Shown one piece after another: positions 4,617-58,871 of a DNA stretch of 64,000 nt. A program made the translations under genes and the position numbers. The notes beneath the pieces were generated by a model. That model worked only from the letters and a program-made list of their open reading frames with translations. It did no database searches and was not told the origin of the DNA. The DNA lies in assembly GCA_964035015.1 (NCBI GenBank), contig OZ035999.1:17162179-17226178 (forward strand), given 5' to 3'. The stretch comes from Corallium rubrum (lineage: Eukaryota; Cnidaria; Anthozoa; Scleralcyonacea; Coralliidae). How positions within the stretch are numbered: the stretch's first letter is position 1; every line of letters starts with the position of its first letter.

Positions 4617-7492
4617 ATGGAATCTAGTCCTGTTCAGGAAGACACTGTAGAAGTTGATGTCTACACTCCTTCAGACATTAGTTCTATTAAAGTACATTGT
4701 CAAGAGACTACACCTGAAGATGACAAAAAAGTTGAAACAACATTATCTTTACCCAGACCTAACAAAGTACAGTATACTTGTATTTTTTACTTTAATTAAA
4801 ATATCAATTCAATTTTTTTTATTCTTTTCACTGCTCAAGTGTATCAATTGTTATAAAATTTTAAAAAAAAATTGGATAATTGTCCCACTGCTATAAGTTT
4901 CTAATAACAGTTATGATAATGATTTGACAGATGAACATTTTTTTGATCTATAATAACTTCTGGTTTAAATTTATTTGTATATTATATGTGCTATAGGTAT
5001 TTGCTGTAGATAAGATCAAGTCACTAAAAGAAAAAGTTCACAAGTTGTCAAAACGAAAATTGTTTCCAGGACAAATTGCAAATGCAATATCAGGTAAGAG
5101 CACCTTCTGATCTACCATGCAGCATCCCCTGACCTACCATGCAACAGCCCCTGACCTACCATGCAGCATCCCCTAACCTACCATGCAGCATCCCCTAACC
5201 TACCATGCAACAACCCCTGATATACCATGCAGCATCCCCTGACCTACCATGCAGCATCCCCTGACCTACCATGCAGCATCCCCTAACCGACCATGCAGCC
5301 TGCCCTAACCTACTATGCAGCATCCCCTAACCGACCATGCAGCATCCCCTAACCTACCATGCAGCATCCCCTAACCTACCATGCAGCATCCCCTAACCTA
5401 CTATGCAGCATTCCCCTGTCAGCTACTATGCAGCTTCTCCTGACATACCATGCAGCATCCCCTGACCTACTATGCAGCATCCCCTGACCTACCATGCAGC
5501 ATCCCCTAACCTACCATGCAGCATCCCCTAACCGACCATGCAGCATCCCCTAACCTACTATGCAGCATCCCCTGACCTACCATGCAGCATCCCCTAACCT
5601 ACCATGCAGCTTCTCCTGACCTACCATGCAGCATCCCCTGACCTACTATGCAGCATTCCCCTGTCAGCTACTATGCAGCTTCTCCTGACCTACCATGCAG
5701 CATCCCCTGACCTACTATGCAGCATCCCCTAACCGACCATGCAGCATCCCCTAACCTACTATGCATCATCCCCTAACCGACCATGCAGCATCCCCTAACC
5801 TACCATGCAGCATCCCCTAACCTACTATGCAGCATTCCCCTGTCAGCTACTATGCAGCATCCCCTGACATACCATGCAGCATCCCCTACCCTACTATGCA
5901 GCATCCCCTGATCTACCATGCAGCATCCCCTGATCTACCATGCAGCAACCCCTGATATACCATGCAGCATCCCCTAACCTACCATGCAGCATCCCCTGAC
6001 CTACCATGCAGCAACCCCTAACCTACCATGCAGCATCCCCTAACCTACCATGCAGCATCCCCCTGACCTACCATGCAGCATCCCCTAACCTACCATGCAG
6101 CAACCCCTGATATACCATGCAGCATCCCCTAACCAACCATGCAGCATCCCCTAACCTACCATGCAGCATCCCCTAACCTACTATGCAGCATCCCCTGACC
6201 TACTATGCAGCATCCCCTGACCTACTATGCAGCATTTCCCTGTCAGCTACTATGCAGCTTCTCCTGACCTACCATGCAGCATCTCGGCATCCCCTTACCT
6301 ACCATGCAGCATCCCCTAACCTACCATGCAGCATCCCCTAACCTACCATGCAGCATCCCCTACCCTACTATGCAACAACCCCTGACCCACCATGCACTGC
6401 AGTCCCTGCTCTATCATGCAACATCCCTTGACCTACCATGCTGCGTTACCTGATCTACCATGCAGTATCTTCATCCACCATGCAGCATCATATAGCATCA
6501 CCGACACCATGCAGCATCTTACATCCCCAATACCATGTAGCATCACGCCATCACCATCATCTACCAAGCAGCATCCCCTTTATCTACCATACGGCATCTT
6601 GCATTCCCATCATCTACCCTGCAGTATCCCTATCAGGCTGCAATATAATCCAAACATAATTTTCCATAGGCGATGAAAGTGTTTGCGGTACGGCTGAGAA
6701 AAGGCGAAAATCAGACGACAATGCGAAAACAAGTGCAAATGATGGTAAAAATACAGGGAGCTGCTCATTAAAACGTCCTCTTACAGAACGTCAACAACTT
6801 GCCTTCCTTCTGGAGGTGACAAGCACCCAGTCTCAGTTTACTTCTGATCAGTCGCACGAAGAAAGCGGCAAAGGAAAGTTCACCAAGCTTAAAGCGCGAA
6901 AAGGTTCAAAGAAAAGCAAGAAGTCTGTAGTTAATCCACGCGTGTATCGTCGCAACGAGCGTGGAGAGACACCTTTACATATTGCAGCCATGAAAGGAGA
7001 TATTACTGGAATTACAAAATTGATCAAGGACGGAGCTGAAGTTAGTGTCACGGACTACGCTGGTAGGAAGTAATCTTTTAAGATTTGTCACTACAATAAG
7101 TTTGTCAATCGTTATTCTAAGAAAATGGAAATAGTGATTCAAAGTTGTGTTGTTCAACCTTTGTGATGTACTTTTTTAAGGTTGGACAGCGCTTCATGAA
7201 GCATGTAATCATGGAAATTTGGCTGCAGCGAGGGTGCTTCTTGACCGTGGAGCCGCCGTCAACGTGCCAGGTTTTGAAGGTGACACACCTCTTCATGATG
7301 CCGTGATAAACAACCATGTTGAGGTAACAGTTTGCTTTTTAGTTTGTTGGTTGGCAGGCGGTCGGACAGTGAGTGAGTGAGTGAGTGAGTGAGTGAGTGA
7401 GTCAGTGAGTGAGTGAGTGAGTCAGTGAGTGAGTGTGAGTCAGTCAGTCAGTCAGTCAGTCAGTCCGTCCGTCCGTCCGTCCGTCCGTCCGT

Positions 7493-7524
<32 letters not shown>

Positions 7525-10500
7525 CAGTCAGTCAGTCAGTCAGTCAGTCAGTCAGTCAGTCAGTCAGTTAGTCAGTCAGTTAGTCAGTAAATCAGTCAGT
7601 GAAATCTTTATTGCCTCCAAATATAAAGAGTATACAAAACTGAGCATAAAAAAGAAAAAACAACAACAGTAGATTACCCCGCACATCCAGCGGAAATATG
7701 TGAAGAATGTTGACGTCATAGGGGTGTGCGCACAGGTGTGCGCACATCCCCCCACTATTAGTATTCAAATATCACTTGCCATAACACAGTGACAACCTAT
7801 AAGATAACGGTCGATATATTGTTTTTAACTAGAAATCAACACGTACTGAAAGTCATTATGCGTTCCTCTAATTTCTATTGTGATGTTCTATACGAACTAT
7901 TATGGGAAGACGTTGAGAATTGGATTTATGATTTTGACGATGATGATGATGATGGTAAAGAAAGAATATTTACGGATCATAGACTCATTATGAAGGTTTG
8001 GTACGCATGCGTTAAGCATGGATATATCGCTAAAGAAAATACCATGGTAGGGATTGACAAAATGAAATTTATCTCCCATAACTTCTTTGAAGAGTTTCGG
8101 GACAAGCGTGCTCGTGGTGATGATGGATACACCCCTAAAGAGAATATCGCGGCGGGGAAACCTATTGACAAAAAGTGAGAGGTTTAAGAACATTGTTAAT
8201 CAAAATAAAAGATACCAATGGATAACGAAAAAAAAACACAATCTATAGTTAACAAGAGTTACCTAAACTATTATTATGGATAAAACAATCATACAGAACT
8301 AAAAAACTCTTTTTAATTAAAAGTGTTTATACTTTTTTAAGAACTTCTATAAACCTTTTTAAGGGAAAATGTTAAATTGTAAGTTAAAATTATTAATAAA
8401 AGATCTCTCATACGTCTTTTTAATGAGAAAATGTTGTTGTTTATTACAATCGTTATGTACACCCCTTTGTGCGCACACCCCTTCGTACGCACTATCGCGT
8501 GGAAAATGCGTGGGGTCCACGCATTGCGGGATTTGGCGCGCACACATTAAACACACAAAAAAGGAATTATTTAAATAAATATATTTATTTAAAAGAAATT
8601 ATTTTACAATATAAAAATTTTTTAGAACATGGTGCGCACAAAGAGCGCTCGCGGGCTACCTTCCGACGGCTATTTTCGGAACGCACTCGGGTTTCCTTCG
8701 GTCATCATCGTATTACTCAAAATGGGCGAAGATATACAAAAAACATTCGAACAGTTTGGCTTGCTTTTTTGGCAAAGATGAAAAAAGAGGCAAAGAAAAG
8801 GAAACAGTGCGATATTTGTGGAAAGCATCCATGGAGCTTAACAAGACACCGAAAAGCACACACAGGGGAGAAGCCATTCCCTTGTAGATTGTGTGGGAAA
8901 AAGTTTGCACGATGATTATTAAAAATAATTGTTCATTGTTGAAAACGTTTATATTGAAAATGATTGTTCATTATAAAAGATTATTAAAAATAATTGTTCA
9001 TTGTTGAAAACGATTATATTAAAAAATGATTGTTCATTATAAAAGATTATTAAAAATAATTGTTCATTATAAACGAATATTAAAAAATGATTGTTCATTA
9101 TAAATAATTATTGAGTTCACTATATACTTTTGAATAATTCACTCAGCCATGTGTTGTTTACCGTTGCATCTAACCAGCTAAGGTCAATAGTTTCGTCTGC
9201 CTGTAGTGTGTTGTCGTCTTGGTTTTCAGGAACGAACAGGAGTTGTTGTGGTCCAGTATTGACGGTGTTAGGTTCACCATTACTGACGGTTTCACTAGTG
9301 TCGGTGCTAGGGTCAGATGACTGTAAAGTTCTGTAAACCACTTCAAACTCATCGAGTAGTTTTGGATATTTCCCAGCACGTAAGTACGGAGTGCCCTTAA
9401 CTTTACCAACTCTTCTTTCTTCCTTTTTCGCATTTTTTTAAACCGTTCTGCAGAGTTACGTTGTTTCTTATCCATTTCGGTAAGATATGTGCGCACACTA
9501 TAATCATTATGTACTTCGTGTAAGAATAATATAATGGTTCCTAAAAAGGGCGGGAAATTGAATTGGATAAGACCCCTTCTAAACGTCAGCGCTCTTTGTG
9601 CGCACATATCTTACCGAAATGGATAAGAAACAACGTAACTCTGCAGAACGGTTTAAAAAAATGCGAAAAAGAAAGAAAGAAGAGTTGGTAAAGTTAAGGG
9701 CACTCCGTACTTACGTGCTGGGAAGTATCCAAAACTACTCGATGAGTTTGAAGTGGTTTACAGAACTTTACTTTCATCTGACCCTAGCACCGACACTAGT
9801 GAAACCGTCAGTATAAATGATGAACCTAACACCGTCAATACTGGACCACAGCAACTCCTGTTCGTTCCTGAAAACCAAGACGACAACACACTACAGGCAG
9901 ACGAAACTATTGACCTTAGCTGGTTAGATGCAACGGTAAACAACACATGGCTGAGTGAATTATTCAAAAGTATATAGTGAACTCAATAATTATTTATAAT
10001 GAACAATCATTTTTTAATATTCGTTTATAATGAACAATTATTTTTAATAATCTTTTATAATGAACAATCATTTTTTAATATAATCGTTTTCAACAATGAA
10101 CAATTATTTTTAATAATCTTTTATAATGAACAATCATTTTCAATATAAACGTTTTCAACAATGAACAATTATTTTTAATAATCATCGTGCAAACTTTTTC
10201 CCACACAATCTACAAGGGAACGGCTTCTCCCCTGTGTGTGCTTTTCGGTGTCTTGTTAAGCTCCATGGATGCTTTCCACAAATATCGCACTGTTTCCTTT
10301 TCTTTGCCTCTTTTTTCATCTTTGCCAAAAAAGCAAGCCAAACTGTTCGAATGTTTTTTGTATATCTTCGCCCATTTTGAGTAATACGATGATGACCGAA
10401 GGAAACCCGAGTGCGTTCCGAAAATAGCCGTCGGAAGGTAGCCCGCGAGCGCTCTTTGTGCGTACCATGTTCTAAAAAATTTTTATATTGTAAAATAATT

Positions 10501-13500
10501 TCTTTTAAATAAATATGTTTATTTAAAAAATCCCTTTTTTTGTGTTTAATGATGTGTGCGCGCCAAATCCCGCAATGCGTGGACCCCACGCATTTTCCAC
10601 GCGATAGTGCGTACGAAGGGGTGTGCGCACAAAGGGGTGTACATAACGATTGTAATAAACAACAACATTTTCTCATTAAAAAGACGTATGAGAGATCTTT
10701 TATTAATAATTTTAACTTACAATGTTAACATTTTCCCTTAAAAAGGTTTATAGAAGTTCTTAAGGAACGCATACTGACTTTCAGTACGTGTTGATTTCTA
10801 GTTAAAACAATATATCGACCGTTATCTTATAGGTTGTCACTGTGTTATGGCAAGTGATATTTGAATACTAATAGTGGGGGGGATGTGCGCACACCTGTGC
10901 GCACACCCCTATGACGTCAACATTCTTCACATATTTCCGCTGGATGTGCGGAGTAATCTACTAACAACAAAACTAAACTATATACATGACAATTTGTAAA
11001 ATAATCTAATACGGTCTAGTTATTTTTGAACGGGTCGAAAGTCGAGTTTTGTACACAGTACGAGATATATGTAACACACTGCATGAATGATTTCCCAGTA
11101 AGGTCTTAATAAAACTGTGATCATCTAAAGAATTGAAAGTGAGTGAGTGAGTGAGTGAGTGAGTGAGTGAGTGAGTGAGTGAGTGAGTGAGTGAGTGAGT
11201 GAGTGAGTGAGTGAGTGAGTGAGTGAGTGAGTGCGTCAGTCAGTCAGTCAGTCAGTCAGTCGGTCGGTCGGTCGGTCGGTCGGTCGGTCGGTCGGTCGGT
11301 CGGTCGGTCGGTCGGTCGGTCGGTCGGTCGGTCGGTCGGTCGGTCGGTCGGTCGGTCAGTCAGTCAGTCAGTCAGCCGAAACTATTGAACGTAGTTTCTA
11401 ACGTTTCGAGCGAAGGCCCTTCGTCAGAGAGAAACGTGCTTTTATACACGGTATAGCTTTGTCAGCTAATAATAACGACGACAACTACATCAACAATGAC
11501 TACAACAACAACAGTCTTTGTAAAGACTATACACACTAACTAAATCAAACTATTTTGCCTTGAGCAACCCTTTCCGATGACTTCTATTCAAGGTTGTTGA
11601 TATGCTGTTGTCCTCCGGTGCAAGTCCACATCAGTCAAACACAAGAGGTAAAAACCCAACCGATTTGATCAACACTGAAGAAATGAGAAAAGTGTTTGCC
11701 TCACATGGAGTGCAACTCCAAGCAATATGTGATGTAGGCAATCATTTCGATGGAAGTAAGATCCTCGCAGATTCCAACAAAGGCAAAACATATATGGAAG
11801 GACAAAATGAGCACCACAACAAGGATTTGATACCAGGGAAGGAATTTCAAAGTAAAATCCCAGAATCAAACGAAGCGAAAGCAATGGAAGGACAAGGTGA
11901 AAGTCGCAATAAGGATTCGATACTAGGGAGCGAAATCCAAAATATGATCTTAGAATCAAACAAAGGTAAAACTATGGAAGGAAAAAATGAGCACTACAAC
12001 AAGGATTTGACACCAGGGAAGGAATTTCGAAATATAATCCCTGAATCAAACAAAGGCAAAACTTTGCAAGGACAAAGTGGACAATACAATAAGGATTTGA
12101 TACTAGGGAACGAAATTCAAATCCCAGAACCAAACAAGGGCAAAACTATGAAAAGAGAAAGTGAACGTCACAACAAAGATTTGATACCAGAGACGGAAAT
12201 CCAAATTAAAATCTCAGAATTCAAAGGTGGAAAAAACGTGGAAGGCCAAAGTAAGCACCACAACAAGGGTGCGACACTAGGGAATGCAATTCAGGATAAC
12301 ATCACAGAATCAAAGAATGGTAAAAACGTGGAAGTCCACCAAAGAGAGCTCCACAATAACGGTACGATACTAGGAAATGAAACCCAAAACAAGATCCAAG
12401 AAGCAGACAAGAACAGAAACGTGGAAAGACAAAACGAACACTACAACAAAGGGTCGATACTAGGGAATGAATTTCAAAGGAAGCAAACTCAAGGAGAATC
12501 AAAGATGGAGAAACCCGTTATGTATATTTGTAAGTTGGCTCCTGGTCAATGGAACGAAGAAATGACTGTACAAACGACTCAGGTAAATCAAGTTTTTCTC
12601 GAAAAACCGGTTGGAGTTCCCAAGATGCCTGAGGCACCTGAGTTAGAAAGCAGATCAGAGAGCGAATTGGAGTCGGTGGTGTTACCTGAGGCTAAAGACC
12701 TTACTGTGGTCAACAAAGAGAAGACGTCTCCCCCAACAGAAGACAAATCTGGGGAAGTGCCCGGCGATAGCGTTGAAGAAGAAGCTCACAGCGACAAAGA
12801 CATTCCAGACCCAAAGTTGCCACAAAGTACAACCGCTTCCCTAGAACGTGAAACCGTGGCGCCATTTTCAGAGGAGAATATAGCTATCGGGGTAACTGAT
12901 ATCGGGGGATTACCCAACTCAGATTCGGCGCGACCAGAAACCCAGTTGGCTTCTCGGGAAAATCTTTCATTTGATCAAGAGAAGACAATACCTTATAAAT
13001 TAAAAAAAAGTGAAGCTGAAAAGGGAATTGAGATAAATGTGGTAGAAGAAAACATGAAAGAAGTGTCAGAGCTCCCAGAAGAAAATAACAGAGCTGACAC
13101 TCCTAGAGACATTACTTTCCTCGGGACTTCTTCAGAGCTTAGAAACACTTCTCTTGACCAGAAAGTACGTGGTGTAAATGACGTTGAAAAAGCTGGTGGT
13201 GAAACCGAATTCACGTTTGTTCTTGGAGACCGGAGACTAGTTTCAACAAATCCACAGGGATTTGACCAAGCTAGCAAAGAAACTGGTTCAAGAAGTGCAG
13301 TTTTAAAGAATGAAGCTATCTACGCGAATCAAGAAGCAAGGACGTTTGACAGACTTGTTTGCACTGACAGCGCAAGCCAAGACGAGTCAAGTCAGATTTA
13401 TAAAACGCACAGAGTTGTGCCAGTTGGTGATCAGTCACATGGAAGATGTGAACTGGGTTCAAAGAACAGCAAGGGAAATGAGAGAGTTGTTTCTGGTCGT

Positions 13501-15907
13501 CGTACTGCAGTGTCAAGGCCGCGAAGGCCTACGATAACATGGAGGTCCTTAATGGCCAAGGGTAGACGTAACTTGTCCGAACTAAGGGTTCCGTATTACG
13601 ATCAGTTTTTGATCAACACTAAAAATTACCAACTTGCGACCGGTGCAGATGATCCAGGTCTTGAACAGGTGTGTATGTTAAGTTGTTTGGTTTTACGTTG
13701 GGATTATGGAAATGTAGCTGCTAATGAACTAGAAGAGCTAACGAATGGTTAACAGACGTTTTCTATATTCCAATTATTTTATCAGACGGTCAAGGCTCTA
13801 CCATTCGGACTGGGTGACAAGAAAGAAGAATTGATTTTGAAACAGGAGAGATCAGAAGAAGAACTCACAAGAAAGCAGAAAAGCGAAGAGGTAGGGTCAT
13901 CATCATCACCACTGTCGTACGTCATCTTCACCGACATCACCAACATCACCACCACCATCATCAACAACACCATCATCGTCACCACCATCATCGTACCATC
14001 ATCATTGTCACCATCATCACTATCATCATCATCACCATCACCACCACCACCATCAACACCATCATCAACATCATCTTCATCACCATCACCAACATCGCTA
14101 CCATCATCACCACCATCATCACCATCATCATCACCACCACCACCACCATCATCATCATCACCACCACCACCACCACAATCATCATCACCATCATCATTAC
14201 CACCACCATCATCACCAATATCATCATCACCACCACCATCATTGTCATCACCACCACCATCATCATCATAACCATCATCTTTACCATCACCAACATTATC
14301 ACCACCATCATCATCACTAACATCATCACCACCATCATTAACATCATCTTCACCATCATGATCGCCACCATCATCACCATCACCACCACCATCATCACTA
14401 CCACCATCATTGTCACCATCATCATTGTCACCATCATCACCACCATCATCACCACTACCAACAACAACATCGTCACCATCATCATCACCACCACCATCAT
14501 CGTCACCATCATCACCAACATCACCACCACCTTTATCACCAAGATTATCACCACCACCATCATCAACACCACCATCATCAATACCACCATCATCGTCATC
14601 ACCGTCAATCATCACCACAATCACCAACATTACCACCATCGTCATTTTACCTTTATTTCTCTACAATAAAGGATAAGCTACAGTTATGTATGGAACAAGA
14701 GATAGTGAGATTTTATGCAAAGAATGCGTACTCATCACTGAAATATCGAGCGCCACCTGGGGTATGCGCTGCCTTGTGTTGGCAAAGGATGGCTCCACAG
14801 CAGCTCAAAATCGAGGTAGGCACAATTGCAACCTTAGCTTTCCATCTGAACCTCGGTATAGCTTGGCAGTAGTATTCGAGCAGAGTATTCGAACTGACGA
14901 ACGTCCACCAAACATCTGTTACTATAATGTATATAGCTCTTTACATTTTGGATGTATTCACAACCAACTCTTTTGCAGAAAAAGAAGCTGTCCCAAAGAC
15001 GTCCTTCAGAACCAAGTAAAGCTTTACCAACAAGCTACCACGAAATTGTCAACAAGTACGATCAACTAAAGGTACATGGATAAAATACAGAATTACCTAC
15101 TTCCTACCTCACCCCCATCCACCTACACCCTCCTCCCTAACCACCACCTACCCTCTTACGATTGCGCAACGATTACAAAAACTTGTCTCGTACGATTTCG
15201 ACAATTCCACAGCATATTACACGCTGCAATGCTTCATTTAAAGTGTATATGAAACGAAAATTAAGTTTGTCTTATTGGAAAGAACTCTTAAAATAATGGG
15301 GAATATCAATTTACAGCTTTTTCATATTTTACTTAGTTCTCGAGATATTTAGACTTATGTGATATTTCAAATGAGATAACTTATGGTTCGTTTTTTTCTA
15401 ATTAACATATTCGAAAATCGTGAATATTTTTTAAGATTATTGATCAAAATCACTTGTAACTTGTCTTTCATGTTTAGTTACATGAACTGTAGCAATATGC
15501 AAAGTTTCAAGTGATTTTGTTCAATAATCTTAAAAATATTCGTGATTTTCGAATATGATAATTAGTGAAAAAACGAACCATAAGTTATCTCATTTGAATA
15601 TCACATAAGTCTAAATATCTCAAGAACTAAGTAAAATATGAAAAAGCTGTAAATTGATATTCCCCATTATTTTAAGAGTTCTTTCAAATAAGACAAACTT
15701 AATTTTCGTTTCATATACATTTAACTTTCTTGCAACGATACGTCAATGCCGTTACGCGTGTAGTGTACACTCTTTGGAATTTTAGTAAATTTAAACTCAC
15801 TATGTTATTTCGTATTATTCTCTGTTCAGAGGTTGATGTCCACAAGGCACAGACACGAACAGCAAGCGTTGGACGCCGTAGCCAAACGAGAGCTACAGAC
15901 CGCATAG
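4617..15907 (+). CDS. ANKRD11/ANKRD12-like ankyrin repeat protein
   Basis: Ten exons: a 5' exon ending at 2942, then 4597-4766 (ATG at 4617), 4997-5093, 6670-7062, 7181-7323, 11593-13668, 13786-13890, 14672-14815, 14979-15071 and 15830-15907. All phases agree; the product is about 1092 residues. Residues from about 150 carry [15 protein letters not shown], the motif preceding the ankyrin repeats in vertebrate ANKRD11/12. Ankyrin repeats follow at about 175-300 ([41 protein letters not shown]). The C-terminus has the other family hallmark: [17 protein letters not shown], then [25 protein letters not shown]11/12 are nuclear cofactors that bind p160 coactivators and HDACs; that role is inferred, not shown. 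It is less than half the length of the vertebrate proteins and lacks their Lys/Glu-rich middle. Instead it has a repeat-bearing 692-codon exon. No polyadenylation signal was assigned. Confidence 0.85.
5100..6640. repeat. 22-bp minisatellite in ANKRD intron 3
   Basis: About 65-70 imperfect copies of CTACCATGCAGCATCCCCTA+AC fill nearly the whole intron, degenerating after about 6400. No gene is present; frames across it are repeat artefacts. Confidence 0.95.
7366..7606. repeat. Tetranucleotide array GTGA / GTCA / GTCC
   Basis: Consecutive blocks of (GTGA)n, (GTCA)n, (GTCC)n and again (GTCA)n in the intron after ANKRD exon 5. It precedes the palindromic element. Confidence 0.95.
7858..8178 (+). 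CDS. Unrecognised acidic small protein, present only in the left arm of the palindromic element
   Basis: Predicted 106 residues starting [20 protein letters not shown], with a run of six Asp ([11 protein letters not shown]) and a basic, Gly-rich end. The equivalent segment is deleted from the right arm between the homologues of about 7868 and 8337. No domain recognised; translation is unproven. Confidence 0.35.
   Translation: MRSSNFYCDVLYELLWEDVENWIYDFDDDDDDGKERIFTDHRLIMKVWYACVKHGYIAKENTMVGIDKMKFISHNFFEEFRDKRARGDDGYTPKENIAAGKPIDKK
8629..8781 (+). CDS. Small frame upstream of and overlapping the zinc-finger gene (left arm)
   Basis: A 50-codon frame starting [16 protein letters not shown]. 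It ends in TGA that overlaps the start of the next frame as ATGA. The same arrangement is in the other arm (10468-10316, minus). No domain recognised. The ATGA overlap resembles compact viral or transposon gene packing but could be chance. Confidence 0.3.
8778..8915 (+). CDS. Tiny C2H2 zinc-finger protein (left arm)
   Basis: Predicted 45 residues: a basic leader MKKEAKKRK, a first finger [18 protein letters not shown], the classical TGEKPF linker, then the [10 protein letters not shown] start of a second finger, where the frame stops. A longer open frame in phase extends upstream to 8469 and could add N-terminal sequence. Probably DNA-binding (inferred from the finger and linker). Confidence 0.5.
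9120..9475 (-). CDS. bZIP-like basic protein in two overlapping frames (left arm)
   Basis: From the ATG at 9475 the frame reads [20 protein letters not shown] then EELVKLRAL, a basic region with bZIP character (N-x-A/S spacing, Arg/Lys-rich, then leucines). A second frame (-1 relative) is open downstream. It reads [20 protein letters not shown] and ends WLSELFKSI at 9120, an acidic, Asp/Thr-rich tail. Either a frameshift, an unseen splice or two separate products would be needed. Confidence 0.4.
9619..9977 (+). CDS. bZIP-like basic protein in two overlapping frames (right arm copy)
   Basis: Inverted copy of the frames at 9120-9475. The basic frame runs from 9619 to 9816 and the acidic -1 frame continues to 9977. 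The two arms differ by an indel of three bases in the acidic frame (VSINDEPN here, VSNGEPN on the left), which keeps that frame open. Confidence 0.4.
10182..10319 (-). CDS. Tiny C2H2 zinc-finger protein (right arm copy)
   Basis: Inverted copy of 8778-8915 with the same 45-residue product and the same ATGA overlap with the frame 10468-10316. Confidence 0.5.
   Translation of the reverse strand: MKKEAKKRKQCDICGKHPWSLTRHRKAHTGEKPFPCRLCGKKFAR
11138..11376. repeat. Tetranucleotide array GAGT / CAGT / CGGT
   Basis: About 240 bp of pure four-base repeats that switch unit from GAGT to CAGT to CGGT and back. They lie downstream of the palindromic element in the same ANKRD intron and mirror the array at 7366-7606. 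Confidence 0.95.
11767..12490 (+). repeat. Coding tandem repeat in the large ANKRD exon (about 8 units of about 30 aa)
   Basis: The sequence around [11 protein letters not shown] recurs about eight times ([77 protein letters not shown]), spaced about 90 bp. It is alternately acidic and basic, Asn/Gly/Lys/Glu-rich and probably disordered. The remainder of the exon to 13668 is a Glu/Ser-rich low-complexity stretch. No known domain is recognised in it. Confidence 0.8.
13891..14655. repeat. (ATC/ACC)n trinucleotide repeat filling ANKRD intron 7
   Basis: About 750 bp of CAT/CAC triplets occupy almost the whole intron between 13890 and 14672. Long Asp/Gly, Met/Val, Ser/Pro and Thr/Ile frames in all phases are artefacts. 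Confidence 0.95.
15242..15720. mobile_element. TTAA-flanked hairpin element, family A copy 1
   Basis: Near-perfect palindrome of about 480 bp. Ends AGTGTATATGAAACGAAAAT and ...GTTTCATATACAT are flanked by TTAA on both sides (15238-15241, 15721-15724). It lies in the last ANKRD intron. The TTAA duplication is typical of piggyBac (also Kolobok). Confidence 0.75.
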
Positions 15908-15953
15908 CCAGCGGTAAGTTGCTTGAGTTTGCCAGTATTTCTCAGGTATTTAA

Positions 15954-16191
15954 CAAATAGATTCCATTTTGCCATTGTCTGTTCAGTTTTATAACATAGC
16001 TTTGATATAGCAATGTTTTTGATTGGCTGTCGTGCGTGCTCCATAACTCGATGGAGCACGCTAAACCATGAGCCATTTCTTAAATAGATGCACAGAAAAC
16101 GTCACAACGTGGTAAGACTTCTTACCACGTTGTGACGTCTCTGTGCATCTATAACTGAACAGACAACCAGACAATGGAATCTATTTGTTTT
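15954..16191. repeat. Foldback MITE just downstream of the ANKRD stop
   Basis: Inverted ends AACAAATAGATTCCATT / complement, with a second internal hairpin (ACGTCACAACGTGGTAAG and complement) around 16096-16136. Confidence 0.6.
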
Positions 16192-16427
16192 ATACAATAC
16201 AAAAATATGCTTCGAAAGGTTTTTATCAAAACTCTTGCTGGATTTGGGGACATGAAGAAAGAAAAAATCAAGTCAGCTGACGTGATCCATGTGTCGGTCC
16301 TCTAATAGATCATGGGCAACAACCAATGAAAACACGCATAGCAACCAGGGTATTGTATAAACAATATTAGAGGATTGCAGTGGGAGTACTCGAGTTAGAA
16401 GCAGATATTGAACATGATAATACTTAA

Positions 16428-17274
16428 AGTGTATATGAAACTAAAATTAAGTTTGTCTTATTTGAAAGAACTCTTAAAATAATGGGGAATATCAATTTAC
16501 AGCTTTTTCATATTTTACTCAGTTCTTGAGATATTTAGACTTATGTGATATTCAAATGAGATAACTTATGGTTCGTTTTTTCACTAATTAACATATTCGA
16601 AAATCGTGAATATTTTTAAGATTATTGAACAAAATCACTTGAAACTTTGCATATTGCTACAGTTCATGCAACTAAACATGAAAGACAAGTTACAAGTGAT
16701 TTTGATCAATAATCTTAAAAAATATTCACGATTTTCGAATATGTTAATTAGAAAAAAACGAACCATAAGTTATCTCATTTGAAATATCACATAAGTCTAA
16801 ATATCTCGAGAACTAAGTAAAATATGAAAAAACTGTAAATTGATATTCCCCATTACAGTAAAACCCCGCATATAAGAACCTGGTTTTTAAGAACCTGTTA
16901 GGCTAAGATTGTCCATTTAGACCCCCTTACATAAGAACCTGTTTTAGCCTAAAATTTGAAAAGGTTCTTATTTTATAATTTACTACCAAGAATAGGTTTC
17001 TATTTGTTAAGATTGAAGTCATTTAGACATAATTATATTCATTTTTTGTATAAATAATAGGCTGTACCAGTATTCTTCCAGGAACCACATTTTTTCCCTT
17101 AAGAAAATAAGAACCTGTTTAAGAACCTAAATAGCCTAATTTCCCAGTAAGCACCAATTATATAAGAACCTTTTTAGGCTAACTTGAAAAATACAGGTTC
17201 TTATATGCGGGGTTTTACTGTATTTTAAGAGTTCTTTCAAATAAGACAATCTTAATTTTAGTTTCATATACACT
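16428..17274. mobile_element. TTAA-flanked hairpin element, family A copy 2, interrupted
   Basis: Same element as 15242-15720, flanked by TTAA at 16424-16427 and 17275-17278. Its right arm is interrupted by a TA-flanked MITE at 16856-17220. Confidence 0.75.
16856..17220. mobile_element. 365-bp TA-flanked MITE (Tc1/mariner-type)
   Basis: Inverted ends CAGTAAAACCCCGCATATAA / complement, flanked by TA on both sides. The host hairpin's other copy at 15242-15720 keeps the uninterrupted sequence CCCCATTATTTTAAG, which directly proves the TA duplication. Confidence 0.85.
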
Positions 17275-19127: not shown

Positions 19128-19690
19128 ATAAGGACTTATTAACCGAGTGCGAGGTCTGTACGGGAAAGTATTTGCCTGAGGTTTTCGTACAGACCGAGCG
19201 ACGAAGGAGCGAGGTTTGTGCGATAAAACCGAGGGCAAATACTTTCCAGTACAGACCGAGCAAACGAGGTTAATAAGGAATTTATTATATGGCTATTGGT
19301 TCATTTTATTTTTAAGTTCCGAGCGTTGTTTTTGTCTGTTTTTGTCTTCGAAGTATGATGTTTACCTTACCTGTTAACTTTTTCGTGTCGCTTCTTGGCC
19401 TTCTTATTTACACCAGTTCGGCTTTTATTTGTCGTTATTTTAGATAAACAGCTTTAAAGAAAACTAGCAGTGATGTTCCAACACATTTTATTGTTCAGAA
19501 TATTTGAATAAAGATACCTATTTCTCTTTTATTTGTATTCAAATCAACTCAGAAATGTTCCCGCCAAAACTTACAGGGCCGAGAAAAAAGCGTATTGACC
19601 GGTCGGTCAATATCGTAAAATCCCGACCTCTCTGGAACCAATCAGCGTGCGTCGTTTTGCGTACGGACCGGAAATCAAACCCAGCCATAT
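19128..19690 (+). repeat. Interspersed repeat family E, copy 1
   Basis: Begins with a foldback of TTAACCGAGTGCGAGG and its complement, continues TTTATTATATGGC and ends GCCATATAATAA. The inner 400 bp has a near-identical inverted copy at about 33113-33530. Shorter relatives lie at 30598-31350 and 38490-39020. Confidence 0.7.
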
Positions 19691-21160: not shown

Positions 21161-24100
21161 TCATGTTCTTTTCATATTATACAACTGTCTAATAAATGCT
21201 TTTAAGTTATTAATATTCGTGCCGTATTTCCCAGACACTCTAATTAAAGGCAACGGTATCTCATTTTCAGTTGTATCACATTTCCCTTCGGAATGGCCTT
21301 TTAGCGTATCTATTTTATTGGCCACGACAGCGGCTGGTAAAGACGACAAGCCGGGCTTGTACATATCGAGTTCTTTTTGCAACATACTGAGGTGTGCTGC
21401 GGGGTTGTCCTGAGAGATGTCTATGACGTACAATAAGCAACGGCATCTTTCAATGTGACGTAAAAACGAGTGTCCCAGTCCTTTGTTCATATGCGCGCCT
21501 TCAATTAAGCCAGGGATGTCAGCAACTGGAGTTAAAAAATAGATACACGAATTAAATCCTACTTTTAAGTTTACACTTATAAAATTTCTCAGGCACATGA
21601 AGAGTTTTAACCAAACAACGATGAAACTCGTACTGGATTGCAGGAATAGTAGTAGTTCGACACCTCTGCGATGTGTAAAGTGAAGAACGACCGGCAGATC
21701 GGCCAGTAAAGACGGTCAAATTCGAACGGTTTTGTTGAATCTTTTCAAAACTTTATCCCTTTCTTTCTTGCTCTCACTTGACATAGGGGCCTACGGTGGC
21801 GTGACTACAACAACTACAGCTATCGCCACCAGAATGCTTTTCCAGTATTTTGGTGCTGCCCAAAAATAGAGGATACTGGCAAAGCATTCTGGTTGTGGCA
21901 GCCAACGCCATTATGCAAATTGCCGTTTGAACAATTAGAGTAAAACCTGGACTCATGGCAGCTAGGAACCTTGTAACGATAGTGACAAAACAGTAAAGAC
22001 ATGCACGCATTGCGTACCTGTTTTTATGTATTGAGACTATTGTTGAGGTGTCAGGTTACAATGGTCTCGTGACGTGTTTACGTCGCTTGTAGGACGTGCA
22101 ATGTAGGATACATTTATTTGTGGGATTATTACCAGGAGAATTACCCTACACAGGCTTCGAGGGAAAGTGGGCTCTACCAACAAACTTGATATTTCTTTTT
22201 GAGCATGCGTGAACGGGTGCCAAGATACTATCTTGGGTCCAGGCTCTAATGCGTCATTTCCTATTTTCCTGCTTACGTGTGTTCGTAAACTAGAACTTGT
22301 TTGACCAGTTTAAAACCTGACTGACTTGCCCCAAACTTGGGGTAAAGATCAAGTTTGTTGGCAGAGTCCACTTTCCCCCTAGCTTGCGTAGGTTGGAAAG
22401 GGGCTCTGACTTGCAGGGTACAGGGGAATAGACAAGGGCAGTAATCACTATTGCCTTGCAGTGTGGAATATGATACATGTGAATCAGGCCTAGCTCACCT
22501 GCTACTTGGAGATAGTCCTCATACTCCACCATACCAACATATGGATTGCGAGTAGTGAATGGGTAAGCAGCAACAGCTGGCTTTGCATTAGATATTGCTC
22601 TCAACAATGTAGACTTGCCTGCATTTGGAAAACCAACCTGAAAAAAGTGACATTTTTATTTAAGAAACAAAATATGTCCTACAGTCATACCCTTCTACAG
22701 TATATACTACAGTACTGGTCAGAATTTTTGGGACACCATAAAGTACCATACTCGCTTACCAAACCCACATCTGCAATAGTTTTCAACTCTAGTTCCACTG
22801 TCTTCTCTTCTCCTTGTTCTCCTTTAGTGAATTCCAATGGACGTCGATTTAATGCTGATTTAAAATGGACATTCCCATAGCCACCTGTGCCTCCAACACT
22901 CACAACAAATTGCTCTTGGTTCTTTTTTAAATCCCCAACTAACAAACCATTGCATTTAACACTGGTTCCTGGTGGTACCTAGAAAAGAGAATAGTTTTGT
23001 CACTATGAGAGTGATAACCCATTCCTGCCTGAGCCAGCCAAAAACAGTCCCTTTATTGTTTTACTCTGTCAAACACCAGATGATTTTACTTATCAGAGAG
23101 AACGTCAGGCATCCTAGGCAGCAATTGGTTAAAGTGCCTATGAAATGAAATTTTTTATTGTTTCATTTGAAAGAGCATCAAAAAGTAGGACAATATGCAG
23201 TTTACCATTCCTTGATATCTTTTATAGTTCCAGAGTTATAAAGATTTAAAGATGTCAAAATGAAGAAAAAATGTGGCAAACAAATTGCTGATTCAGCACA
23301 AATTGTGACGTCATGTGGTTTGCATGTTAATTTGGTGAATGTTTAAATGAACTATAGCTCAGTTACTATGTGTTAGAATCAAATGAACCTTTGCACACAT
23401 ATAGTACAAGATGAAACACAGTTGATAATATCACAAATTTTGTTGTCAAGGTAACACTGTTGTACCCAGGCCCCTTGCATGGATTTTATAAAACACCATG
23501 TATTTATCTCTGGGCATAATTTTCAAATTATTATAGTATACACATATTTTAGGCATGCATAGGCATGACAAGCACATGTCTAATATTATTTTATCCTTAT
23601 CAGGACAGAGAAGGTGGTTTATATATAAAATCTGTGTAAGGGGCCTGGGTACAACAGTGTTACCTTAACAACAAAATTGGTGATATTATCAACTGTGTTT
23701 CATCTTGTACTGTATGTGTGCAAAGGTTCATTTGATTCTGACACATAGTAACTGAGCTATAGTTCATTTAAACATTCACCAAATTAACATGCAAACCACA
23801 TGCATGACATCACAATTTGCACTGAATCAGCAATTTGTTTGTGCCATATTTTTTCTTCCTTTTGACATCTTTAAATCTTTATAACTCTGGAACTATAAAA
23901 TATATCAAGGAACGGTAAACTGCCTATTGTCATACTTTTTGATGCTCTTTCAAATGAAGCAATAAAAAATTTCATTTCACAGGAACTTTAAATAATTAAA
24001 TGTTCTGTACCTTTACAATTAAGTGCCTTCCATTTCTTCCATGACAACAGTCTGTTCGTCCAGGGCCACCATTTTCAGCTTTCAAATGTTTGTTTATATG

Positions 24101-31700: not shown

Positions 31701-34700
31701 TATTTCTGCTGTTTATGTCTGAATGGCTTTGTTCTAAATGTAATTTATGATTTGTTCTTAAAGGGAGCGATCGGATGCCAAAGTACTTGGAACTCTTCAA
31801 CAATCCATCTGCTCCACTATCACCTTTGACAGACGAAGAAAACTCCACACCTTCGAAGATCCCAAGCAGCGATCAGAACGCGCAAAGCCCTCAGGAACCT
31901 GGTGGTGAATCATCTGCCAAGCGCAGTCTTAACATGCCTTCCTCTGAAGAACTTCAGTCAGTGGCTAGCTCCAGTTCTCACTCCTCCGTATCGTCTCCTG
32001 TATCAACTAGAGTCCAGCCCCACGCGGTCCTTCCACAGTTCACTAACGCCAAAACCAACTACGGGGTCCTCACCCATATCCCAACTCCAATCCCGTACCC
32101 CCGGGCAAACTTCTCACCTCTCACTCCCCCCGGACCACATGGGCTCGATGCATATGGATTGCCCAGCACAAGTTCGAGTTTGCTACCAGTCTCTTCTTAC
32201 CATCCACGTATGTCATCGGTTGCTATGGAAATGCATAAAGTGCCATCTTGTTACCCGGGTGGAAGACAAGGTTTTTGTCCTGTGACGTCTCACAGCTGTG
32301 TCGATATGGCGCCTGGTAACCTTCAGCCTGAATCTAGCCTGAATACACCCGATCAAACCTTCAGCAAAAGTTCGATAAGTCCAAACAAAAATCCGAACAA
32401 AAGTCCAAACAAAAGTCCAAACAAAAGTCCAAACAAAAGTCCAAACAAAAGTCCAAACAAGAGTCCAAGCAAGGGGTCACTGAGGGGTGGTGGTGGTAAC
32501 AAGGGAACCTCGAGGAACTCTGAGAACACCTCAGCTGGTGTACCGATGGTCCTTGCTGGAAAACAGATCGAAAGTCATGTTCCAGTTGGTCAAGGTTTAG
32601 ATGAAGTACCGCTGTTTACGCCGACGGAGCTAGAATTTAAGAATCCGCTGCGGTACATTGAGTCAATAGCACCACGAGCTGCGCCACTTGGTATTTGTGT
32701 TGTTGTGCCTCCTGAATCATGGAAGGTAAGATAACTTGTTACCCTGTTTCTATTTTGGTCTGTAGCACTGACATTGAGTGATATTACTTGTAAACGACCT
32801 ACATGTATATAACCTGTCTCATCTTATGGTTTTTGTAATATTCTGATTTCTGATTGGTCAACGCACGGTCTGTAAGAATGCGTATCTGACGGTCCATCTT
32901 TTTCCATGTTCGGACCACTGTCCCAGATGTTAATTTTTCTGGCGCGAATTTTAATACAATAAGTATCGAAACACTTGGAATAGTTATATTAATAAATGAT
33001 TTATTAATCTCGTTTACTCAATTTCTACGGGAAAATATCAGATCTCGGTCGTTTTGGTACGAGTTTCGCCTAGTCGCCTTCGGCTCGGTTGGTATACTGT
33101 CAAGACCTTGGTCTAATGTACCGACCTCGTTCTCAGGTTTGATTTCCGGTCCGTACGCAAAACGACGCGCGCTGATTGGTTCCTGAGAGGTCGGGATTTT
33201 ACGATATTGACCGACCGGTCAATACGCTTTTTTCTCGGCCCTGTAAGTTTTGGCGGGAACATTTCTGAGTTGATTTGAATACAAATAAAAGAGAAATAGG
33301 TATCTTTATTCAAATATTCTGAACAAGAAAATGTGTTGGAACATCACTGCTGGTTTCCTTTAAAGCTGTTTATCTAAAAATACGACAAATAAAACCCGAA
33401 CTGGTGTAAATAAGAAGGCCAAGAAGCGACACGAAAAAGTCAACAGGTAAGGTAAACAGCATACTCCGAAGACGAAAACAACGTTCGAAGCTTAAAAATA
33501 AAGTGAACCAATAGCCATATAATAAATTCCTTATTAACCTCGTTTGCTCGGTCTGTACGGGAAAGTATTTGCCCTCGGTTTTATCGCACAAACCTCGCTC
33601 CTTCGCGCTCGGTCTGTACGAAAATCTCAGGCAAATACTTTCCCGTACAGACCTCGCACTCGGTTAATAGGTCTTTAATGTAACCAAGTCAGTCGAAAGC
33701 ATATATTAAAGGCGCTCCACACTTGTCAGAGCTTGGAGCACGGCTAATTTTGTAAGTGTTGGTTTTCAGAGGGAGAAAAACCGTCGCGCCCTGAGAAAAA
33801 CCTATAGCTAAAGCACGTGGAGAGACCAACACAACATCGTCATAATTTTCCTGTATAATGACTACATAAATCGTAAAAAAACCGGACAATAAACAAATGA
33901 CTGATGAACTTACAATTTCATTCACAAAAATATCAAACTTCAACGAAAACATTTTTCAACTTTAATTTTATTTTTGACTTTTGCACTATCCATCTATTGC
34001 AGTATGTCGTAAATTTCGCCGCCCATCAGTATACTGCGAAGTTTCCATGGAAATTCTACACGAATGATAAGACGGTTTTACGGTTTTCAAAACATAAACT
34101 AAAAAAGCCGTTTTAATAATACAAATAGTGAAATAAAAGTAGCGTGCTGCGTAGGCAGTGTAGAAACAACAATCGAAATATAGTAAGGTTATATATACTG
34201 CCGAAACAGAACGTAGGAGCCTAACGTTTCGAGCGAAGGCCCTTCGTTTCTCTCTGACGAAGGCTCCTACGTTCTCTGTTTCGGCAGTATATCTAACCTT
34301 ATTCTATTTCGGTTTAATAACAACTGAGAAATACCTAATGCTAAACCGTTGAAAATTATAGTTAGGTTTAAGGGCTTCTCTCTTATCTTCTTTCCTTAGC
34401 CTGACTTCTACCTCTCTGACGAAATACGTTTCACAACGAAATTTCAATACATCCATCGTCTCAGCAACAGGTAAGGAGAAAACTTCTCAAACTCGACAAC
34501 AGAAAGTTTTTCTAACTACCTAACGCAACTTTCACGAAAAAATGTTTTGATAATATTTGGTAATTCAATAAGTTCTATTACACCAAGTATAAAGGTAAGA
34601 GAGGGAATTATATAGTAATGAGTCAGTCCTATATCATAATTTCACTTCAATTCTTTCTTTAATAATGAGCGATAGCCAATCACCAAACGATACCCATAGC

Positions 34701-46700: not shown

Positions 46701-49700
46701 ACTGCATTTCCAACGACGAAGGGAACACCATATTCCAAGTAACTATAAACTGGGGCATTTGCGAAGTTTAAAATTTTTATAATGTGAATGATGAAGTAAC
46801 TTCATTTCCTTTTAGGTCGAAGTGGAATTTAAACGTTTTACCGAAAGTTAATGGATCAGCTGTTAGAGATCTGACTGATGTGGAAGGTATGAGGCTCCTT
46901 TGAACAGGACCGTCGCGAAGGGGGTTGAGCGGAAGGGAGGGGGGGGGGGGGAGGTGTGAGCATTAATTTTGCCGATAAATGGGCGTGGTTATTGGGTGTG
47001 GTCATTCAAAAGTAATAAACCCACAATAGGTGACATGAAAATTGTCTAATTTTAAAACGACCAAACTACCAGAAACTCCGACTGTCTTACAGGAAAGATG
47101 CATGTAACTATAGTTATATTGGCTTCAAGGGGGTCAATGAAGACCGTGGGGCTCCACTACTACAAAAGAATAGCCTACTCTGACTACTCTTTCTATAGTT
47201 TGGATCTCGTTTAAGCTTCAATCAGTTCTTCAAAAAATACGTTCTAACATAGTAATATAATAAGGTTAGTGTACTGCTGAAACATGGAATGTTAATTGTT
47301 AAGGTCTAACGTTTAGAGCGAAGGGCCTTCACTCGAAGCGTTAGACATCTACGACTACATTCCATGTTCCAGAAGACAAAATGGTGGCACATTTCATTGT
47401 CGATGAAAGAGAACGAGACACTGTCTACAAGAGAAAGCGACACCCTGGATAAAAGCATAGTCCCTAGAATTATATTGTCTGGAAACGCAGCGAACATCAA
47501 AGCGGTTGACAATGAGCTACAATTTAGGTTGAGGGTTGCAAATAAGGTGCACAATCTTTTGTTTTACGTTCATTAATATTTATAAAGCAACGCTGCTATT
47601 GGTTGATTGCTTCATTATACCAAAAATACAATGTGTTCAGCAAGCGTTAAGGTGAAATAAGGTGCACAAACGTGAACAAAAACCTTGAACAAAGACTTTG
47701 GCCGCGTTTCCAGACAATTTATTTCTAGGGACTATGATAAAAGCAAGTAGCAACGATAATCTTTAAGGTAGCAAAAAGTGTATTTATAACTATAGTTCCT
47801 CACACCTCAGTTCCTCTTCTGTACATCTCGTGATTACGGTGCTTTCGAATGGTAATTTGCAGTCTTGCCGAAAAAAGATTTGCCGACAAAAGTTTCATTT
47901 GCCGACAGCAGTTTTGCTGGGGGTGGGGTGGGGGGGGGGGGGGGGTGTCACTCCCCACGCCTTCCCCCCCCCCCCCCCCTCCCCACACGCCTCCCCCACT
48001 CCCCTTCGCGACGGCCCTGCGTCTAAAATTAAGTATTATCAAGATCAAACTCGTTTTCTGCCGAAGACTGACCTCAATAATATCTAATACAAGAGTGGAT
48101 CGAGCAACTATTGTTTGGAAGATGAAGCCAGCATCCACCATTACTAAGCGACCAGCTGCATGTGTGAAATGTCGCTACGGAGTTTGTTCTTGCTCATTAT
48201 TACTCTTTTTTCGCTTTTTAAAATTAAGATCACAGCATTGTGTCCCGAATTTTCCATGCATCTTCGTATTGATCTATGATAAGTTGTACGTATACATGTA
48301 GTGCATGTGGTACGTTTGCGAGCTTGGTGTAATGTAACAGACGTTTGGTAGAAGTTCGTCAAGCTCAATGGACCTTTTCACCAATAGCGGCGCCATCTTG
48401 AATTCGCAATGCATTGTGGTCTATCCAGGGTAATAAGCTCAATTAAAAGGGTGATTGCTTAGTGTTGAGACACAATGCGCTAATTTTATCTTGATAAACA
48501 CTTTCATGGCAACAATGTCTAGATATGATCGTTGTCATATTGGTAAAAGCAATAATTCTCGTACGTATAAGGATACATTTGTCATGAATCTATCCTTACA
48601 CGTCCGAGAATTGTTGCTTTTACCAATATGGCAATTATTATATTTAGATATTGTTGCCACGAAAGTATTTATAAAGAAAAAATTACCGCATTGTCTATCA
48701 ACACTACGCAATCGCCCTTTTAATGGAGCTTGTTGCCTTGGATAGACCATAATGCATTGCGAATTCAAGATGGCACCGCCATTGATGAAAAGGTCTATTA
48801 CTCAGAAACGATTTCTGAGCCCCAGACAGGGTTCCAACCTGCAACCTTTTAATGATCGGTTAGACGCTCTAACCATTGAGCCACTGTGGCTCAGATGGAG
48901 AGCTATAAGGTTGCAAATTCATAGTCGTATTTGCTCCTTCGTGGTAGCGTTTGCTGAGTAATTGAGCTTGATGAACGTCCACCAAACGTCTGTTACATTA
49001 CACCAAGCTCGCAAACGTACAGTGGCGGAAATTCACTTTTTCAGGTCGGGGGCAAAGCCTCAAATATATCCGACAAATCTAATAAATATCCGACAAATGC
49101 ACGAAAAGCGCTGGATTTTGACTGGTTTTTGCCCTTTTTGTCGAATATTTCCGACAAATTGACTATTTTGACATGGATGTGGGGGGCGGCTTCCCCCACC
49201 CCGCCACAATTTCCGCCACTGCAAACATACCACGTGCACTACATGTATACGTACAACTTATCATGTACTGTAGAGACAGCATGCGCAGTAGATACAAAAA
49301 TGGTTCAATACTTTCGTGAGTCATTGTAAACGGGAACACCACTGGGCTAGCCTGTAGTACAATATAACCTGATCCGATAACATATATTTTTTTAGGTATT
49401 TCGTCACCTTTGGTTAAAATTGAGATGATGTTGTCGACTGAAGTTTGGCAAACTCCACCACACGCATTGTACAACGTAGATTACTTACATCAAGGATCGG
49501 ATAAAATATGGTAGGAATGAAAATTGGGTTTTTTTGCTGCTCGTGAAATGTTAATACACGTGCGATTTTTCTCGCGCCGGCAACGCAACGTGTCAAGTTT
49601 CATTGCATTGTTGACGCAAGAGAGCAAATCGCGCATGTATCATATCTCGCGCGGCAACGCAATTGACCGTACCGAAAAATGGCGACTTGTACATTTAACC

Positions 49701-58470: not shown

Positions 58471-58871
58471 GTACGACGACTCTTCTTGTATATTTTTTTT
58501 GTTTAATTTGTGAAAAAAATTTTCGAGAAAACCTAGGTATAAGTTGTACGTATACATGTAGTGCATGTGGTATGTTTGCGAGCTTGGTGCAATGTAAGAG
58601 ACGTTCGGTGGACGTTCGTCAAGCTCAATTACTCAGAAAAGATTTCTGAGCCCCAGACAGGGTTCGAACCTGCAACCTTCTAATGACCGGTTAGGCCTGG
58701 TTTAGGGGCCGTTCACACTTCGCTCACTTTGAGATCGATCTAAAGTAGATCGATCTCAAACCGATCCGAGATCGCTTTTGTCGCACTTTGTCGAGCGTTC
58801 ACACTTGTATTGCCTAAGTTGCCTGATCTGGTCGTTCCCAGACCCTGCTGTGGCTGCGCGCCATTTAAAAA

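What the first reader, a model, noticed from the sequence alone, without database searches (positions are those of the whole stretch)
7668..10962. Near-palindromic 3.3-kb mobile element carrying two copies of its own small genes
The element is essentially one gene block present twice head to head, with a short unique centre. Most non-autonomous elements carry no genes. This one retains open frames in both arms for a zinc-finger mini-protein and a bZIP-like protein, both regulatory in look, with no transposase. The recurrence of GTGCGCAC near ends and centre suggests protein-binding sites. I do not recognise the family.
Basis: partly seen in the sequence, partly recalled or inferred. Interest (0 to 1): 0.82.

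Follow-up and report, generated by a model that had tools for sequence, protein, structure and literature searches.

The report
Folded-back, gene-bearing Polinton remnant
This near-palindrome is one end of a virus-like transposon (a Polinton, also called Maverick) copied twice head to head, most likely made when its DNA folded back on itself during copying, and it is one of at least twenty short elements with inverted arms in the same animal genome.

Summary
The 3,295-nt element (7668-10962) has AGTAG...CTACT ends and a perfect 6-bp target duplication, AACAAC. It is a non-autonomous derivative of Polintons (Mavericks); full-length copies with protein-primed polymerase and rve integrase lie in the same genome. 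In three of them the continuous terminal repeats are about 150-170 nt; the window's 1.4-1.8 kb arms are an inverted duplication of the polymerase-side end with small accessory genes. The 99-nt "unique" centre is the leader of one of these genes, between two GTGCGCAC sites 109 nt apart here and 106-110 nt apart in 6 of the 7 relatives where the pair could be measured (11 scanned). This fits a single strand that folded back and primed its own copying. A palindromic Polinton of another lineage has a similar junction (11 of 12 nt). Of 75 paired ends, 54 span 2-5 kb; all 20 of these that I fetched carry inverted arms. Gene 3 ("bZIP") is split over two frames in both arms and the bZIP reading found no support; the zinc-finger frame is open but short. 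An assembly artefact is very unlikely. Verdict: new variant of a known kind.

The parts
7662..7667 (.). left target-site duplication AACAAC
   Evidence: equals 10963-10968
10963..10968 (.). right target-site duplication AACAAC
7668..9487 (+). left arm: copy of the polymerase-side end of a Polinton; starts AGTAG
   Evidence: relatives
9598..10962 (-). right arm: inverted copy of the same end; ends CTACT; lacks about 470 nt present in the left arm
9488..9497 (.). left fold site, TGTGCGCACA (self-complementary)
   Evidence: its GTGCGCAC is 109 nt from the other
9498..9596 (.). loop: 5' leader of gene 3, the only part present once apart from gene 1
   Evidence: alignment with 8 Polinton-end loci
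9597..9606 (.). right fold site, TGTGCGCACA; lies just before the start of gene 3
7711..7718 (.). TGACGTCA (CRE-like) in left terminus, next to two GTGCGCAC (7726, 7738)
10912..10919 (.). TGACGTCA in right terminus, next to two GTGCGCAC (10885, 10897)
7858..8178 (+). gene 1: open 106-aa acidic ORF, left arm only; distant homologues lie beside the integrase gene in larger Polintons
8778..8915 (+). gene 2: open 45-aa C2H2 zinc-finger frame, left arm; shorter than in relatives
10182..10319 (-). gene 2: same frame, right arm
9120..9475 (-). gene 3, left arm: basic N-terminal part and acidic C-terminal part in two frames
9619..9977 (+). gene 3, right arm: same two frames
8914..9112 (.). A+T-rich tandem repeats (66-nt period) between genes 2 and 3, left arm
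9985..10183 (.). same repeats, right arm

Best explanation
A non-autonomous derivative of a Polinton (Maverick). Shown: it has Polinton-type ends and a 6-bp target duplication, and consists of the polymerase-side end of a Polinton (terminal repeat, accessory genes, leader of gene 3) present twice in inverted orientation around a 99-nt loop. Inferred: during protein-primed, strand-displacement replication, a single strand ending in the distal GTGCGCAC site folded back, paired with the proximal GTGCGCAC site 109 nt away, primed its own copying back to the end, and so made a linear palindrome with two terminal origins and no core genes. The Polinton integrase then inserted it. It would depend on full-length Polintons for copying and insertion, as a snapback defective genome depends on its virus.
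For: Ends and 6-bp duplication of Maverick type (PMC8097293, passages). Larger relatives in the same genome with pPolB (PF03175, 1.8e-25) and integrase (rve 3.1e-13, chromo 7.1e-12). Three full-length copies read at both ends: continuous inverted repeats of 149, 149 and 168 aligned nt, perfect 6-bp duplications. The window's centre aligns with the gene-3 leader of 8 loci. Site spacing 109 nt here; 106-110 in 6 of the 7 loci, among 11 scanned, where the proximal site was found. Second case: a palindromic Polinton of another lineage (C20) with two pPolB genes, TSD TATATT, loop about 300 nt, fold at an inverted repeat matching 11 of 12 in relative L060. 75 paired ends: 54 of 2-5 kb, 10 of 13-20 kb; 20 of 20 short ones fetched have inverted arms.
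Against: No replication intermediate was seen; the fold could have arisen by another template switch or by repair in the chromosome. Relatives have a third GTGCGCAC 135-138 nt from the proximal site that could have served as well. Of 20 short elements only the window's was traced to its fold; the others' centres are of unknown origin, and one (L045) has arms that include sequence of the other Polinton end. Among the matches shown (40 of 304 candidates scored) there is no second palindromic copy with these genes, so mobility of this palindrome after folding is not shown. One of the three full-length copies has a second inverted stretch (100 nt, 98%) some 190 nt further in, so parental inverted repeats can be longer than 170 nt. 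The three copies read at both ends lack gene 2 and have only weak matches to gene 3; the closer relative (C52) was not read at its other end.
Confidence: 0.8

Rival explanations
1. A full-length Polinton inserted normally and then, in the chromosome, lost its core and had one end replaced by an inverted copy of the other (gene conversion or break repair).
For: No second palindromic copy with these genes among the matches shown; such an event would keep the target duplication.
Against: The fold lies at paired GTGCGCAC sites with the parental spacing; 20 short elements at different sites carry inverted arms with their own duplications, and many of them resemble one another, so palindromes appear to insert as units in this group.
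Confidence: 0.13
2. An ordinary MITE or foldback transposon of a cut-and-paste superfamily with long terminal repeats.
For: Size, inverted arms, absence of a transposase; this window has other long inverted repeats.
Against: 6-bp duplication, AGTAG ends, and arms shared with elements that carry pPolB and integrase.
Confidence: 0.02
3. Assembly artefact (foldback read).
For: Foldback reads do make false palindromes (recalled); no reads were available to check.
Against: Palindrome ends at the element boundary, flanks differ, target duplication, 13 substitutions and a 470-nt indel between arms, and 19 further short elements with inverted arms.
Confidence: 0.01
4. A retained regulatory cassette: the two gene copies are kept because their products act on GTGCGCAC/TGACGTCA sites.
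For: The sites recur in termini and in the gene 3/pPolB intergenic region of relatives; gene 1 (left arm) and the 45-aa zinc-finger frame (both arms) are open.
Against: Gene 3 is split over two frames in both arms, gene 1 is lost from the right arm, and gene 2 is shorter than in relatives.
Confidence: 0.04

Closest known systems
Polinton / Maverick (polintoviruses)
   Same: AGTAG...CTACT ends, 6-bp target duplication; larger relatives in this genome have protein-primed polymerase and rve integrase (PMC8097293 and PMC6431247, passages seen)
   Different: No match to the polymerase, integrase or candidate capsid protein in the window element; arms about ten times longer than the continuous terminal repeats of three full-length copies; palindromic. 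Ends are AGTAGN, close to but not the same as the (AGT)2 and (AG)3 motifs reported for vertebrates
Snapback defective interfering genomes of adeno-associated virus
   Same: One genome end duplicated in inverted orientation, also in asymmetric form (PMC8235507, passages seen)
   Different: AAV is a parvovirus with hairpin ends (recalled); here the parent has a protein-primed type polymerase and the product sits in a chromosome; interference was not tested
Defective adenovirus DNA from the left genome end
   Same: Protein-primed linear DNA; light particles hold left-end DNA (PMC5033970, passages seen, citing Daniell 1976). That such DNA can be inverted-duplicated is recalled; the original paper is not held
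   Different: Adenovirus; not integrated with target duplications
Coral MITEs (CMITE)
   Same: Short non-autonomous elements in animal genomes (PMC2872659, abstract seen)
   Different: Linked there to piggyBac-like transposons, not to Polintons

Membership tests
Polinton/Maverick (window element as derivative) | 5'-AGT...ACT-3' ends | tested here: met
   AGTAG...CTACT. PMC8097293 gives (AGT)2 or (AG)3 for vertebrates; here AGTAGN, so similar, not identical
Polinton/Maverick (window element as derivative) | 6-bp target-site duplication | tested here: met
   AACAAC twice; 17 of 20 short elements perfect, 3 of 20 with one mismatch
Polinton/Maverick (window element as derivative) | protein-primed DNA polymerase B | tested here: not met
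   tblastn with the relative's polymerase finds nothing in the element; present in relatives (PF03175 1.8e-25; 199 matches in the genome, 0 of 14 control genomes)
Polinton/Maverick (window element as derivative) | rve integrase | tested here: not met
   tblastn finds none in the element; present in L029 with chromodomain and in L053, L054. Hence 'non-autonomous derivative', not 'a Polinton'
Polinton/Maverick (window element as derivative) | capsid proteins, FtsK-type ATPase, protease | tested here: inconclusive
   candidate capsid ORF of L029 (5843-6808) has no match in the element and itself no significant Pfam match (best 0.088); ATPase and protease not searched
Snapback (defective interfering) genome | inverted duplication of one genome end only | tested here: met
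   beyond position 250 the window arm matches 10 of 13 polymerase-end loci and 0 of 3 other-end loci; the other end of its closest full-length relative (C52) was not read
Snapback (defective interfering) genome | loop bounded by short inverted repeats of the parent | tested here: met
   TGTGCGCACA pair, 109 nt apart; 106-110 in 6 of 7 loci with the proximal site (11 scanned)
Snapback (defective interfering) genome | copied with a helper and interferes with it | not testable with these tools
   no replication data
bZIP transcription factor (gene 3) | basic region followed by leucine heptads | tested here: inconclusive
   no support: no Pfam bZIP match in the window pieces or in L010, L017; PDB profile search gave no bZIP, best E 1.4; model has a basic helix 8-35, pLDDT 62 overall, and an invariant proline follows. 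Heptads judged by eye only
C2H2 zinc-finger protein (gene 2) | C2H2 fingers | tested here: met
   relative L017 above cut-off (zf-H2C2_2, 48.5 bits, 7.3e-13); window frame matches below the cut-off (33.6 of 40 bits, 4.2e-8)

The most novel reading that the evidence does not exclude
Short palindromic Polintons are a self-sustaining class of endogenised snapback genomes. They arise repeatedly when protein-primed replication folds back, outnumber their full-length parents, carry two origins, and restrain the parents, both by competing for polymerase and integrase and by making double-stranded RNA from the inverted arms.
Probability: 0.35. Interest if true: 0.82.

Novelty: new variant of a known kind. 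Interest (0 to 1): 0.64.

Why it matters
That Polintons replicate by protein priming is, as far as I recall, inferred from their genes. A fold-back scar at the expected distance between two parental sites, with a similar one in a second lineage, would be an indirect trace of single-stranded replication intermediates, left in the chromosome. It also offers a simple origin for short non-autonomous Polintons, and raises a testable question: do such palindromes act as defective interfering genomes or as sources of silencing RNA against their parents? In the literature searches made here (open-access papers only) I saw no description of palindromic Polintons. I judged these papers from listings, except for passages of PMC6431247, PMC8097293 and PMC12220804 and the abstract of PMC2872659.

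Tried and rejected
Viral contigs (IMG/VR): two terminal DNA patterns, the zinc-finger frame and the integrase gave no relatives. Phage records: one 38-nt match only. PHROGs: nothing of weight, best E 0.019. PDB with gene 1: nothing at E up to 1. AlphaFold models of gene 3 and gene 1 are low in confidence (pLDDT 62 and 65), so no fold search was run.

Considered and disfavoured: MITE of a cut-and-paste family, assembly artefact, bZIP, and the idea that the 19-kb element on C47 is the autonomous parent. Its ORFs look like Penelope-type reverse transcriptase (my reading of the ORFs; no family search), so I read it as a short element with nested insertions; it is nevertheless counted among the ten pairs of 13-20 kb. 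Of those ten, polymerase or integrase sequence was seen in five (C52, C18, C12:5585567, C1:87801945, C1:76678852); the other four were not looked at.

Rows dropped: gene-3 rows of L021 and L011 held stop codons at the coordinates given; L013 and L016 were left out with them, untested; the alignment used 6 rows. In one search, ends without an adjacent partner were not counted (209 ends, 75 pairs). Pairing assumes that neighbouring ends belong together; two pairs under 1 kb and four of 20-60 kb may be wrong or nested. The 20 short elements were chosen by me, not at random, from the 54 in the 2-5 kb bin. Of four converging pPolB pairs that I noticed in the cut list, two were fetched; both are palindromic. 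In one search the fold was readable in relative L060 only; for L061 and L062 my script printed the wrong side.
Full report
What is there. The element occupies 7668-10962 and is flanked by the direct repeat AACAAC. Its two arms differ by 13 substitutions in 1348 aligned bases and 8 gap runs, one of 470 nt. The 470-nt stretch, in the left arm only, holds most of a 106-aa acidic ORF (gene 1); its start codon lies in the part that both arms share, so the right arm has lost it. Each arm also has a C2H2 zinc-finger frame (gene 2) and, on the other strand, a gene with a basic N-terminal and an acidic C-terminal part (gene 3). The centre is 99 nt. Upstream lies an ankyrin-repeat ORF (Ank 5.1e-5 at 6660-7070); from the frames on both sides I think that the element lies in an intron of that host gene (my reading, not tested).

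What it is. In the same genome (474 Mb, 312 contigs, unnamed) the element gave 195 match rows, with 40 of 304 candidates scored and palindromic matches counted in both directions. Four other elements with inverted arms had the same type of ends and perfect 6-bp target duplications (GTTGAT, GAGGTG, GGCAAA, AGTGCC). Other matches proved to be ends of larger elements. At C52:4764205-4782311 (18.1 kb between pattern-matched ends) the arm-like sequence is followed by a family B DNA polymerase (PF03175, 1.8e-25) and then an rve integrase with a chromodomain (3.1e-13, 7.1e-12). With AGTAG ends and 6-bp duplications, close to what PMC8097293 describes for vertebrate Mavericks (passages), this is a Polinton. 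Three other full-length copies were read at both ends: continuous inverted repeats of 149, 149 and 168 aligned nt and perfect duplications ACCGTC, CACACC and AACATG; the third has one more inverted stretch (100 nt, 98%) further in. The other end of the C52 copy was not read.

Which part was duplicated. Beyond position 250 the window's left arm matches 10 of 13 polymerase-end loci and 0 of 3 other-end loci. Eleven loci, apart from the window and L009, hold matches to both gene 2 and gene 3; in L010 and L015 the polymerase ORF follows. In the three copies gene 3 is only weakly recognisable (E 6e-5 to 1e-3) and gene 2 is not found, so accessory genes vary. In L010 gene 3 faces away from the polymerase gene, and between them lie TGACGTCA and GTGCGCAC. 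The window's centre aligns with the leader of gene 3 in 8 loci. Gene 1 has two distant homologues (48-51% over about 72 aa), both in Polinton DNA beside polymerase and integrase sequence, and a 97% homologue in L009. All three genes are thus Polinton accessory genes.

How it arose. Of 11 relatives scanned, 7 show the GTGCGCAC next to gene 3; in 6 of these 7 the next GTGCGCAC lies 106-110 nt away, in the seventh (L014) that site is mutated and the next is at 137 nt. In the window the two sites are 109 nt apart. Relatives also have a further site at 135-138 nt, which the window lacks. GTGCGCAC is its own reverse complement, so a single strand ending at the distal site can pair with the proximal one; copying from there back to the end gives exactly this element, with the leader as loop. 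That this happened on a displaced strand during protein-primed replication is inference. A second case supports it: on C20 and C49 lie palindromic Polintons of another lineage (11.4 and 12.3 kb), each with two converging polymerase matches, arms 98.6-99.7% identical in the stretches compared, and duplications TATATT and GACCTC. In C20 the fold lies where the relative L060 has an inverted repeat matching 11 of 12 nt, with a loop of about 300 nt. The fold in C49 was not traced.

How common. A terminal pattern has 209 matches and 0 for the reversed control (the lists hold 79, 80, 23 and 27). They form 75 adjacent pairs: 54 of 2-5 kb, 10 of 13-20 kb, 11 others. I fetched 20 of the 54 short ones: 20 of 20 have inverted arms along 41-85% of their length; 17 of 20 have perfect target duplications and 3 of 20 one mismatch. 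Beyond position 250, arms of 11 of the first 12 clearly match polymerase-end loci and 0 of 12 the other end; the twelfth (L032) has only a 35-nt match. Of the next 8, 8 match polymerase-end loci, L051 only one of them; 2 of 8 also match the other end, L045 over 230-260 nt and L052 over some 40-50 nt. In one search all 11 other short elements share more with one another than with the window, so many are probably copies of a few ancestors and the 54 are not 54 independent folds. Palindrome fraction in the 34 short elements not fetched is unknown.

State of the genes. Gene 3 lies in two frames in both window arms; L010, L012, L014 and L017 have it in one frame, while L011, L015, L020 and L021 show breaks of their own. 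The break shared by both window arms means that gene 3 was broken before the duplication, or that the arms have been homogenised since. The zinc-finger frame of 45 aa is open in both arms; in L009 it is continuous with 51 more upstream residues and in L017 it is longer, with more fingers. Whether the 45-aa form is a whole protein is open. Gene 1 is open. The bZIP reading found no support. The element is best seen as carried along by its ends and by helper Polintons, not by its own proteins.

Function. Inferred: two terminal origins and short length would favour it in replication; integrase in trans would insert it. AAV snapback genomes contain one end in inverted form and can inhibit the parent when in excess (PMC8235507, passages); whether these elements interfere with Polintons is unknown. 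Inverted arms could yield double-stranded RNA; no RNA data were available.

Limits. I had no reads, no RNA and no related genomes. The replication mode is inferred from genes. The literature searched is the open-access part only. On checking this report against the calls I corrected the state of gene 2, the denominator of the spacing test and the length of the parental terminal repeats; the odds did not need to change.

Noticed in passing
G000 C49:8475191-8487475 and C20:2810809-2822245 (L043, L044, L055-L058): Palindromic Polintons of a second lineage with two converging polymerase matches; on C49 both lie in open frames of 1201 aa. Two more converging pairs, on C25 (668822/676577) and C1 (17719949/17726560), were not fetched.
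   Followed up: partly
L053:2977-3402, L054:1361-1786, L029:2122-2538, L017:1439-1912: A recurring Polinton accessory ORF with a cysteine/histidine motif (NGC...HPSQ..HDCLMM-like), function unknown.
   Followed up: no
window 58869-61257 and 62690-63082: PIF/Harbinger-like DDE transposase pieces (PF13359, best 1.5e-15; superfamily name recalled) and a Myb/SANT-like ORF (PF13837, 3.5e-20) nearby.
   Followed up: no
window 15241-16855, 19129-19681 with 33136-33677, 23123-23997, 48367-48799, 51126-52010, 52506-53345: Further long inverted repeats of 87-99%, without the Polinton terminal pattern; probably other MITE-like elements.
   Followed up: no
window 7367-7600 and 11138-11375: Four-base tandem repeats on both sides of the element.
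   Followed up: no
window 48818-48890 (-) and 53484-53546 (+): Two tRNA matches in Rfam, which may be tRNA-derived SINEs.
   Followed up: no
G000 C47:314323-333360 (L024-L026): An element with these ends, apparently a short one split by nested insertions whose ORFs look like Penelope-type reverse transcriptase, between ORFs that look like leucine-rich repeats.
   Followed up: partly
window 31751-32731: JmjN domain ORF (4.9e-12): probable exon of a host gene of the histone-demethylase type.
   Followed up: no
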